Assembly (NCBI GenBank): GCA_026390165.1
Contig: JAPLGM010000012.1
Span: 62,001-126,000 of the forward strand
Direction of reading: 5' to 3'
Length of the DNA stretch: 64,000 nt
Source: Campylobacterales bacterium
GTDB taxonomy: Bacteria; Campylobacterota; Campylobacteria; Campylobacterales; Sulfurimonadaceae
This document shows positions 426 through 2,013 of the stretch, in pieces; positions within the stretch are counted from its first letter, which is position 1; each line of letters opens with the position of its first letter. Below the pieces are notes generated by a model. That model was not told the origin of the DNA and searched no databases. It saw nothing but the letters and a program-made list of their open reading frames with translations. The position numbers and the translations under genes are program-made.

Positions 426-647
426 ATGATGTTGTCAATACAGTTAAATAATCCCGAACTCGAAAGCTTTATACAAGATGAATATCGAGGTGATGAAAAT
501 ACTCTCATGCGCCAGTTTGTAGAATTTTTGCAATTTCAAAAAATTAAGAGTGAAGTGAAAACATCCATTGAAGAATTGGATCGTGATGAGTTTATAGGAA
601 TTGACGAAGCATTTGAGATGGCTACGGCAAAGTATGCTAAACATTAA
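426..647 (+). CDS. small antitoxin-like protein of a ParDE/RelBE-type module
   Basis: This 73-residue, acidic, probably helical protein starts at one of two adjacent ATGs (426 or 429) behind a GAGGAG site. It overlaps by 14 bases a gene whose N-terminus looks like a ParE toxin, which is the usual arrangement of type II toxin-antitoxin pairs. The C-terminal half (IGIDEAFEMATAKYA) resembles the toxin-wrapping tails of small antitoxins. No DNA-binding fold can be assigned with certainty. The role as antitoxin is inferred from size, charge and position. Because the partner toxin appears broken, this may be a leftover antitoxin. Confidence 0.5.
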   Translation: MMLSIQLNNPELESFIQDEYRGDENTLMRQFVEFLQFQKIKSEVKTSIEELDRDEFIGIDEAFEMATAKYAKH

Positions 648-921
648 AAGCATCGTATTTTCTAAAAAAGCTACCCATAGATTGACTAAAATAACGGATT
701 ATATTTACAATCAAAGCCGATCAGATACAATTACCCTTGCCTATATGGTGAGATTAAAACAATACATCTTCAACATTCTCACACAATTTACTAGATACTG
801 TCATTGCGTAGTTTCCCTCGTTGGGAATGCAGAATCGGTGGTATACGCTACCAAGCTGGAGCTTGGTAGCGAGAAGTGGTATCACATCAGGCGTGATCGT
901 TATCTTTCAAGTGCAATATGA
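634..921 (+). pseudogene. ParE-like toxin gene interrupted by repeat hairpins
   Basis: Translation from the ATG at 634, inside the antitoxin's 3' end, begins like a ParE/RelE toxin: IKSIVFSKKATHRLTKITDY, then a helix through the phrase RLKQYIFNILTQF. After about residue 53 the family resemblance stops. The frame then runs through a truncated repeat (817-831) and a perfect hairpin (847-870) to a stop at 919-921. A ParE fold needs its C-terminal beta strands, and these are missing in frame. A short frame downstream (SGVIVIFQVQY, ending near 926) may be their remnant. I read this as a toxin gene inactivated by insertion of a REP-like element. A shortened but still expressed protein of 95 residues cannot be excluded. 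Confidence 0.5.
817..876. repeat. REP-like hairpin element, one intact and one internally deleted copy
   Basis: Bases 847-857 and 860-870 are perfect 11-base inverted arms around GG, followed by CGAGAA (871-876 starts GAGAA after the shared C). The core CCAAGCTGGAGCTTGG plus CGAGAA recurs at 1797-1821. Just upstream, 817-831 reads CTCGTTGGGAATGCA. This is the reverse complement of the 1791-1821 element with exactly its 15-base hairpin core missing. The layout of two adjacent copies in opposite orientation resembles BIME-type arrangements of REP elements. Confidence 0.6.
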
Positions 922-958: not shown

Positions 959-1387
959 ATGGTTGATAAAAGTGAAGACATTAGATGGAAGCAACGATTT
1001 TCAAATTACACTAATGCCTTTGAACAACTACAAGAAGCTGTTGAACTTTCTCAAGAACGAGAACTTTCTATGCTCGAAAAACAGGGGCTGATTCAAGCAT
1101 TTGAATACACCCATGAATTAGCTTGGAATGTCATGAAAGATTTTTTAGAATATCAAGGAAATCAAAACGTCAAAGGCTCTCGTGATGCTATTAGAGAAGC
1201 ATTTAAAGTGGCTCTCATAGACGATGGTGAGACATGGATGGAAACCATCCAAACCCGAAATGCAACCTTACACGGATATAACAAAGAAATGGCGAAAGAG
1301 GTGGTCAATACTATCATAAACGATTATATGGAGATCTTCTCAAAATTTGAAAATGAGATGTTGCTTCTTTTGGATCGAGAGAGCTGA
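959..1387 (+). CDS. nucleotidyltransferase substrate-binding protein, HI0074 family (HEPN-like partner)
   Basis: This 142-residue all-helical protein carries the signature features of the HI0074 family. They are an N-terminal helix with RFSNYTNAFEQLQEAV, the LIQAFEYTHELAWNVMKDFL segment, the GSRDAIREAFKVALI segment, and a late RNATLHGYNKE stretch containing the conserved H-x-Y. HI0074-type proteins pair with a minimal nucleotidyltransferase (HI0073 type), and the pairs are generally regarded as MNT/HEPN-type toxin-antitoxin modules. The downstream MNT gene begins one base after this stop codon, which fits that pairing. Length is normal for the family. The toxin or antitoxin assignment of each partner is family knowledge, not visible here. 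Confidence 0.82.
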   Translation: MVDKSEDIRWKQRFSNYTNAFEQLQEAVELSQERELSMLEKQGLIQAFEYTHELAWNVMKDFLEYQGNQNVKGSRDAIREAFKVALIDDGETWMETIQTRNATLHGYNKEMAKEVVNTIINDYMEIFSKFENEMLLLLDRES

Positions 1388-1388
1388 T

Positions 1389-1691
1389 ATGCAAGAGCTT
1401 TACGGGTTACGCGTTGATATTATTGAAAAAATAGTACGAACTATTAAAAAAAATTTGAAAATACAAAAAATTATCCTCTTTGGTTCACGAGCGAAAGAGT
1501 CCTATAAAAAGGGTTCCGACATCGATATATCGATCGTTTCAGAGGATTTAAGCCTAAAAGAATTAAATCACATAAAAGTGATGCTGGATGATTTAATGCT
1601 CCCCTACAAAATAGACTTATTAGATTATGGACGTATTTCCAATAATGATTTAAAAGAGCATATTAATAGAGTGGGAAAAATTTTGGCTTAG
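1389..1691 (+). CDS. minimal nucleotidyltransferase (MNT domain), partner of the HI0074-type protein
   Basis: I place the start at the ATG at 1389, one base after the upstream stop. An earlier in-frame ATG at 1347 would give a 14-residue extension overlapping the upstream gene. The 100-residue protein has the pol-beta-fold motif GSRAKESYKKGSDIDISI, with the G-S-x10-D-x-D pattern that binds two metals, and a later LPYKIDLLDY supplying the third acidic residue. In MNT/HEPN modules this enzyme adds nucleotides to its HEPN-like partner and neutralises it. It is complete and intact, so this pair is probably functional. Confidence 0.85.
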   Translation: MQELYGLRVDIIEKIVRTIKKNLKIQKIILFGSRAKESYKKGSDIDISIVSEDLSLKELNHIKVMLDDLMLPYKIDLLDYGRISNNDLKEHINRVGKILA

Positions 1692-1790: not shown

Positions 1791-1821
1791 GCATTCCCAA
1801 GCTGGAGCTTGGGAACGAGAA
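1791..1821. repeat. REP-like hairpin, second intact copy
   Basis: Bases 1794-1803 and 1806-1815 are perfect 10-base inverted arms around GG, flanked by GCA and CGAGAA. The core and the CGAGAA flank match the hairpin at 847-876. Elements of the form CATTCCC...GGGAACGAG are common dispersed repeats in bacterial genomes and are often mobilised by RAYT-type transposases. No such transposase gene is in this window. Confidence 0.6.
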
Positions 1822-1877
1822 AAACGGTTGAAGAAAAAAGTGGAAAAGAAAAAAGCTGTTTTGATTTTTGGGAGTTT

Positions 1878-1976
1878 GTGAAGCCAGAAGGCGAAGGACT
1901 CTCATCCCCTTCTAAGACCCGTTCCTAATTAAAGGCGGTACGGCCGAGAGATTCACCGCGTCTTCCTTCTGGTAAC
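1878..1976 (+). ncRNA. candidate stand-alone HEARO/omega-RNA (IscB-type guide RNA scaffold), no nuclease gene adjacent
   Basis: The segment folds compactly. An outer stem pairs CCAGAAGG (1884-1891) with CCTTCTGG (1965-1972). Hairpin A pairs GAAGG (1893-1897) with CCTTC (1908-1912). Hairpin B pairs GCGGT (1935-1939) with ACCGC (1955-1959). The loops of A and B carry CTCTC (1899-1903) and GAGAG (1946-1950), which are complementary and would form a pseudoknot or kissing pair. This arrangement, and the string CTCTCATCCCCTTCTAAGAC, match my recollection of the HEARO RNA family (HNH endonuclease-associated RNA), now known as the omega-RNA of IscB. In IscB loci the guide is the sequence just 5' of the scaffold, here upstream of about 1880, and the nuclease gene follows. 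No IscB frame is present downstream, so this would be an orphan copy. The fold is seen in the sequence; the family name is inference from memory. Confidence 0.55.
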
Positions 1977-1979
1977 GGT

Positions 1980-2013
1980 AAAATTGTACTGCTTATAAAA
2001 TTGTACTGCTTAC
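1980..2013. repeat. tandem duplication of a 17-base unit
   Basis: AAAATTGTACTGCTTAT (1980-1996) is followed directly by AAAATTGTACTGCTTAC (1997-2013), with one mismatch at the last base. It lies directly 3' of the pseudoknotted element and may mark its boundary or be a replication-slippage product. Confidence 0.75.

What the first reader, a model, noticed from the sequence alone, without database searches (positions are those of the whole stretch)
1878..1976. Orphan HEARO/omega-RNA-like element: a stand-alone IscB-type guide RNA candidate
A gene-free stretch folds into an outer 8-bp stem (1884-1891 with 1965-1972) enclosing two hairpins (1893-1897/1908-1912 and 1935-1939/1955-1959). Their loops carry the complementary strings CTCTC and GAGAG, forming a pseudoknot or kissing loop. 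The fold and the string CTCTCATCCCCTTCTAAGAC agree with what I remember of HEARO RNAs, the omega-RNAs that guide IscB nucleases. No IscB, IsrB, TnpA or TnpB frame lies within the window, so this would be a solitary copy that could use a nuclease encoded elsewhere. Its guide would be the sequence just 5' of about 1880. Solo omega-RNAs as trans-acting guides, or domesticated regulatory RNAs, are little studied.
Basis: partly seen in the sequence, partly recalled or inferred. Interest (0 to 1): 0.85.

Follow-up and report, generated by a model that had tools for sequence, protein, structure and literature searches.

The report
Orphan RNA antidote to phage nuclease
The stretch is not a CRISPR-like guide RNA but most likely a left-behind, tRNA-shaped RNA antidote whose relatives sit next to RNA-cutting toxins of phages and bacteria, which suggests that some of these toxins are neutralised by an RNA instead of a protein.

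Summary
The stems and the loop-loop pairing at 1884-1972 are real and supported by covariation, but the HEARO reading is not: Rfam finds no HEARO. The RNA is most likely read from the MINUS strand: in all 15 copies checked a sigma70-type -10 box lies 6-12 nt before the outer stem (window: also TTGACA-N17-TACAAT, 2028-2000). In every intact relative it lies convergently at the stop codon of a PBECR-type nuclease gene: small stand-alone genes in Sulfuricurvum and relatives, or the toxin end of phage head proteins (SuMu, Mannheimia phage, Dulem virus 31, a Campylobacterales genome). Ten members share an outer stem, three arms and a 5-bp kissing pseudoknot that occurs in five fully complementary versions. 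The RNA occurs without toxin four times; none of eight close toxin homologues lacks it. The window keeps the RNA, its promoter and only the toxin's last 19 codons. A Helicobacter prophage carries a stack of such units, as immunity genes of polymorphic toxins do. Best reading: an orphan RNA antitoxin/immunity gene of a new type III-like system, perhaps a tRNA-mimic decoy. Transcription, toxicity and neutralisation are untested.

The parts
1884..1972 (-). core of the structured RNA (outer stem P1 to P1), cloverleaf with kissing loops
   Evidence: topology against shuffles, covariation in 9-10 members, folds
1884..1891 (-). P1, one arm (pairs with 1965-1972)
   Evidence: CCAGAAGG/CCTTCTGG; rewritten in complementary fashion in relatives; 1887/1969 differ from L002 as a compensatory pair
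1965..1972 (-). P1, other arm; first arm of the minus-strand RNA
1893..1912 (-). P2, T-arm-like hairpin (1893-1897/1908-1912)
   Evidence: GAAGG/CCTTC, elsewhere AGAGG/CCTCT, GTAGG/CCTAC, GTAAG/CTTAC
1899..1903 (-). kissing-loop half in the P2 loop
   Evidence: CTCTC; CTTGC, CTCCC, CTGGA, CTCGA in relatives
1946..1950 (-). kissing-loop half in the P3 loop
   Evidence: GAGAG; GCAAG, GGGAG, TCCAG, TCGAG in relatives
1940..1960 (-).
   Evidence: paired change in L049, folds of L014, L049, L054
1915..1939 (-). P4, third arm between P3 and P2 (approximate limits)
   Evidence: minimum-energy folds of the window, L014, L049, L054, L070
2023..2028 (-). -35 box TTGACA
   Evidence: consensus scan, 11 of 12 with the -10 at 2000-2005, spacer 17; same -35/-10 pair in L005
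2000..2005 (-). -10 box TACAAT, distal copy
1983..1988 (-). -10 box TACAAT, proximal copy, 10 nt from P1 (the position conserved in relatives)
   Evidence: sequence; position conserved
1822..1881 (+). remnant of the lost nuclease gene: last 19 codons and stop; on the minus strand the 3' extension of the RNA
   Evidence: identical to L002 over these 60 nt; part of the shared block 1822-1985

Best explanation
The window holds an orphan gene for a small structured RNA, transcribed from the minus strand (start near 1976 or 1993, reading towards about 1822). [quoted passage not shown] I propose that the RNA is the nuclease's antitoxin or immunity factor: made constitutively from its own sigma70 promoter, it binds the nuclease through its cloverleaf and kissing loops and blocks the active site, perhaps as a decoy of the natural RNA substrate (a tRNA, inferred from the shape and from what colicins D and E5 do). 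In the window the toxin was lost and the RNA kept, which would protect the cell against phages or neighbours that carry the cognate toxin. Shown: structure, covariation, promoter position, linkage to the nuclease, orphan copies. Inferred: transcription, toxicity, neutralisation, tRNA mimicry.
For: RNA at the stop codon of all eight close nuclease homologues: 7 of 7 in the family and L054. Same architecture behind MuF-PBECR genes of SuMu and Mannheimia phage, whose C-termini pass Pfam's PBECR3 cut-off (62.6 and 47 bits against 30), and of Dulem virus 31. Five complementary kissing-loop versions, rewritten P1 and P2; 307 of 312 pairs kept on the minus reading. Minus-strand -10 6-12 nt before P1 in all 15 copies; 11 of 20 more distant loci have an extended minus -10 against 4.5% background and 0 of 20 on plus. 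Orphan RNAs without any PBECR domain in G000, G014, G026, G077. Compensatory difference in the window's orphan. Stack of three RNA-like units with a foreign toxin tail in prophage L103. Invariant His, Tyr, Lys, Ser in the nuclease.
Against: No transcript data and no toxicity or neutralisation data. PBECR3 matches of the stand-alone proteins are below Pfam's cut-off (L013, L049) or absent (L002, L005). AlphaFold failed (pLDDT 40). The G-U/A-C strand count is partly circular because P3 and P4 were drawn from minus-strand folds. The best promoter match in the window is no rarer than chance for 500 bp. SuMu also has a 67-aa ORF after the RNA that could be a protein immunity factor.
Confidence: 0.72

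Rival explanations
1. Type I-like cis-antisense RNA: the convergent RNA overlaps the 3' end of the toxin mRNA and lowers toxin expression by base pairing, not by binding the protein.
For: Convergent orientation and overlap with the stop codon and the end of the gene.
Against: What is conserved is a folded core with compensatory changes, mostly beyond the coding sequence; orphan copies keep it although the target mRNA is gone.
Confidence: 0.15
2. Orphan HEARO/omega-RNA of an IscB-type nuclease.
For: Structured RNA with a loop-loop pseudoknot and no partner gene nearby.
Against: No Rfam hit; no TnpB domain in the genome; partner in relatives is a PBECR nuclease; likely transcript on the other strand.
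Confidence: 0.02
3. Recombination site (attC-like, end of a mobile gene cassette) or transcription terminator that follows different genes.
For: Lies directly after the stop codon of different genes in L006 (SIR2-like) and L007 (PemK-like).
Against: No attC core sequences seen by eye, no terminator found, one copy per genome, -10 box on the far side in all copies, constant linkage to one nuclease family.
Confidence: 0.05
4. Phage RNA with a structural or packaging role near the MuF head gene, later captured by chromosomes.
For: Several relatives lie behind MuF head-protein genes.
Against: Stand-alone nuclease-RNA pairs and orphan RNAs without any MuF protein, next to defence and toxin-antitoxin genes.
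Confidence: 0.06

Closest known systems
Type III toxin-antitoxin systems (ToxIN, CptIN, TenpIN; PMC5086642)
   Same: An endoribonuclease (here predicted) paired with a pseudoknotted RNA encoded beside it.
   Different: Toxin of the BECR fold instead of the ToxN family; one cloverleaf unit instead of tandem repeats; RNA downstream and convergent with its own promoter instead of upstream in one operon with a terminator between.
MuF polymorphic toxins of temperate phages and their immunity genes (PMC5576092); PBECR domains (PMC5512222)
   Same: C-terminal PBECR nuclease on a phage head protein, immunity position directly downstream, orphan stacks with toxin tails.
   Different: At the immunity position there is a structured RNA gene instead of the small ORF reported behind 89.4% of MuF toxin genes.
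Type I antisense antitoxins with a 3' overlap
   Same: Convergent RNA overlapping the end of the toxin gene.
   Different: Conserved folded core with kissing loops; kept as an orphan without target.
tRNA and tRNA-like RNAs
   Same: Four-way cloverleaf in several members; contact between the loops of the D-arm-like and T-arm-like hairpins.
   Different: Contact is a 5-bp kissing helix; no T-loop consensus; not recognised by ARAGORN or Rfam.
HEARO / IscB omega-RNA (RF02033)
   Same: Structured RNA with a loop-loop pseudoknot.
   Different: No model match, other size, other partner protein, no guide logic.

Membership tests
HEARO / IscB omega-RNA | Match to the Rfam HEARO covariance model | tested here: not met
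   No hit in the window, around the element at permissive threshold, or in the own genome (genome controls silent)
HEARO / IscB omega-RNA | Linked to iscB/isrB or related transposon genes | tested here: not met
   Partner in relatives is a PBECR nuclease; no TnpB domain in own genome; RRXRR none but controls silent
Type III toxin-antitoxin | Endoribonuclease toxin | tested here: inconclusive
   PBECR3 domain above cut-off in the SuMu and Mannheimia phage members, sub-threshold in stand-alone ones; activity not testable
Type III toxin-antitoxin | Structured, pseudoknotted RNA encoded beside the toxin | tested here: met
   Covarying kissing loop and linkage
Type III toxin-antitoxin | Tandem RNA repeats upstream of the toxin in one operon, terminator between | tested here: not met
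   Single unit, downstream, convergent, own promoter (definition in PMC5086642)
Type III toxin-antitoxin | RNA binds and inhibits the toxin protein | not testable with these tools
   Needs experiment
MuF polymorphic toxin immunity gene | Encoded directly downstream of a MuF toxin domain | tested here: met
   SuMu, Mannheimia phage, Dulem virus 31 with Phage_Mu_F; window copy itself is an orphan without MuF
MuF polymorphic toxin immunity gene | Orphan copies with remnants of toxin C-termini | tested here: met
   Window 1822-1881 and L103 unit 2
MuF polymorphic toxin immunity gene | Small protein-coding ORF | tested here: not met
   Non-coding: changes follow base pairs; no conserved reading frame seen by eye
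Type I toxin-antitoxin | Antisense RNA acting by pairing with the toxin mRNA | tested here: inconclusive
   Overlap exists, but the folded core is what is conserved and orphans lack the target
tRNA | Recognised by tRNA models (ARAGORN, Rfam) | tested here: not met

The most novel reading that the evidence does not exclude
A previously undescribed class of RNA immunity genes: tRNA-shaped decoy RNAs with interchangeable kissing-loop codes that neutralise phage-borne MuF-PBECR ribonucleases and are exchanged, stacked and domesticated as orphan RNAs in the way immunity proteins of polymorphic toxins are. The window is one such orphan.
Probability: 0.5. Interest if true: 0.92.

Novelty: new variant of a known kind. 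Interest (0 to 1): 0.85.

Why it matters
Immunity to polymorphic toxins is described as protein-based, and RNA antitoxins that act on proteins are few. A structured RNA at the immunity position of PBECR nucleases, found in Campylobacterota, two Pasteurellaceae phages and a gut phage, would add an RNA branch to toxin-immunity biology, explain how lysogens survive nucleases carried in their own virions, and point to the toxin's substrate (the RNA it mimics). The five kissing-loop variants make specificity directly testable. Orphan copies, as in the window, would be RNA-only protection.

Tried and rejected
HEARO/Rfam reading: rejected. Integron attC or terminator: considered because L006 and L007 follow other genes; rejected. 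Plus-strand RNA: disfavoured by -10 positions and by G-U against A-C counts. AAGAC/GTCTT helix in the window's minimum-energy fold: not kept in L005 or L013, rejected. First covariance model R1 had a poor automatic structure and was not used; MAFFT shifts P1 and P2 by one base between groups, so pairs were counted by hand. IMG/VR scans with the nuclease and with RNA patterns found nothing; a looser pattern gave 15 hits without the fold, taken as chance. Phage and plasmid DNA searches with the window element: none. AlphaFold of the nuclease from two sequences: useless, so no fold search. L037, L039 and L042 share only about 20-28 nt with the motif, taken as chance. The automatic topology test on the more distant Helicobacter-type loci was mixed and mostly not significant; pseudoknots in those groups were read by eye only, so only the ten members listed are claimed as one RNA family.

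Full report
OBSERVATION. One sequence alone would not prove a structured RNA (plus-strand z +0.64; minus-strand z -1.4). Rfam gives nothing on the whole window at curated thresholds and no HEARO at a permissive threshold on 1700-2200; the HEARO model finds nothing in the whole genome, though its controls were silent too. The element is single-copy in its genome.

RELATIVES. Six of 40 other genomes of the genus carry it at 91-97% identity; none of 59 genomes outside the genus did in that search. Named records identify the genus as Sulfuricurvum. In four of these copies (L002-L005) it lies directly after the same gene of about 138 codons; in the window only the last 19 codons of that gene remain (1822-1881, identical to L002). 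In L006 it follows a SIR2-like gene and in L007 a PemK-like gene. More distant copies were found in another genus of the family (L013, L014), and again the gene directly upstream is a homologue of that gene.

PARTNER PROTEIN. A profile of the gene (A3) hits 7 of 228 genomes of the family; all seven have the RNA at the stop codon, including one found only through the protein (L049). Phylum-wide the only new strong hit (E = 2e-53) is L054, where the domain forms the C-terminus of a long open frame (482 codons) and the RNA is again at its stop codon. [quoted passage not shown] One His, two Tyr, one Lys and one Ser are invariant over 18 divergent domains. Both phages and Dulem virus 31 (Phage_Mu_F with a sub-threshold PBECR2 hit) have the same RNA architecture directly after this gene. 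The N-terminal part of L054 has no Pfam hit; calling it MuF-like is my inference.

STRUCTURE. With helices defined by hand in nine members, 206 of 216 pairs are Watson-Crick. The kissing pair exists as CTCTC/GAGAG, CTTGC/GCAAG, CTCCC/GGGAG (in two distant members), CTGGA/TCCAG and CTCGA/TCGAG, always 1 nt after the P2 arm. P1 and P2 are rewritten in complementary fashion. The topology is reached by at most 5 of 400 shuffles in each of nine members. Minus-strand folds of L014, L049, L054 and L070 give a four-way cloverleaf: outer stem, D-arm-like P3, a third arm P4, and T-arm-like P2 next to the outer stem. The kissing pair joins the loops of P3 and P2, as D- and T-loop meet in tRNA. In ten members the minus reading has 285 Watson-Crick, 22 G-U, 4 A-C and 1 other pair; a plus reading would leave 23 non-pairs. 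ARAGORN and Rfam do not call these RNAs tRNA.

PROMOTER. In 13 of 15 copies the best-scoring minus-strand -10 hexamer ends 6-12 nt before P1; in the other two (the window and L054) the script's best site is farther away but a further -10 hexamer lies 10 nt from P1 in the printed sequence. The transcript would thus start at or just before the outer stem. Often there is an extended TGn or a good -35, e.g. TTGAAA-N17-TATAAT in L049. The window has TTGACA-N17-TACAAT (2028-2000; 11 of 12), whose -10 is one of two copies made by a 17-bp duplication; the other copy (1983-1988) is the conserved one. One promoter-like site is expected by chance in 500 bp, so the case rests on conservation. Over 20 more distant MuF-PBECR loci, mainly Helicobacter-type prophages, the extended -10 TGNTANAAT occurs on the minus strand within 160 nt of the stop in 11, on the plus strand in none, against 4.5% background (some loci are related to each other).

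IMMUNITY LOGIC. RNA without toxin: G000 (window), G014, G026 and G077, none of which has a PBECR domain by profile A6. Toxin without RNA among close homologues: none of eight. Against L002 the window's RNA core differs only at 1887 and 1969, which pair with each other: a compensatory difference in an orphan. L120 (G077) also differs from L054 by a paired change in P2. In the Helicobacter pullorum prophage L103 the 462-nt gap after the MuF gene holds three RNA-like units; the second is 95% identical to the toxin tail plus RNA of L066, the third 73% to the stretch behind L101's gene. Stacks of orphan immunity genes with toxin tails are a hallmark of polymorphic toxins (own knowledge). Neighbours of the copies include a UG5-type defence reverse transcriptase (L002), a PDC-S46 protein (L003), SIR2 (L006) and HepT/MntA genes (window).

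MECHANISM. Most likely a constitutive minus-strand RNA folds into a cloverleaf, binds the PBECR nuclease and blocks its active site, possibly as a decoy of its RNA substrate. In lysogens the RNA would protect the host from the nuclease of its own phage; as an orphan it would protect against foreign ones. Shown: structure, covariation, promoter position, linkage, orphan pattern. Inferred: transcription, toxicity, binding, tRNA mimicry. Type I-like antisense action cannot be excluded.

NOVELTY. Classical type III systems have tandem RNA repeats upstream of the toxin in one operon (PMC5086642). MuF toxins are described with small ORFs as likely immunity genes (PMC5576092), and the passages read of the paper that defined PBECR mention no RNA antidote (PMC5512222). 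Literature searches found no RNA immunity for MuF/PBECR toxins; subscription papers and preprints are not held. I rate it a new variant of a known kind, since RNA-neutralised RNases are known, with a fair chance that it deserves a class of its own.

Noticed in passing
L103 1810-2271 (BK070135, Helicobacter pullorum prophage): Stack of three different RNA-like units behind one MuF gene, the second with the tail of a foreign toxin; looks like an orphan immunity array.
   Followed up: partly
L055-L068 and L078-L096 (Helicobacter-type prophages): Other MuF-PBECR genes are followed by 70-150 nt without an ORF, in several sequence groups that differ from the window's RNA, often ending in a minus-strand extended -10; probably further RNA types.
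   Followed up: partly
window 959-1691 and 2199-2537: HepT/MntA-like (type VII toxin-antitoxin) pair and a second MntA-like gene flank the element.
   Followed up: no
window 426-921: Small gene followed by a short ParE-like frame; looks like a degenerate toxin-antitoxin pair (by eye).
   Followed up: no
window 1791-1820 and 835-875: Palindromic repeat (CCAAGCTGGAGCTTGG type); one copy abuts the break point of the lost nuclease gene at 1822 and may have mediated the deletion.
   Followed up: no
window 1978-2011: 17-bp tandem duplication that doubles the -10 box of the RNA promoter and puts the distal copy 17 nt from TTGACA.
   Followed up: partly
L002 1887-3128: Defence-type reverse transcriptase (UG5-nitrilase model, E = 9e-102) directly beyond the nuclease-RNA pair.
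   Followed up: no
L098 2068-2268 (phage SuMu): 67-aa ORF after the RNA, before the next morphogenesis gene; could be an additional protein immunity factor.
   Followed up: no
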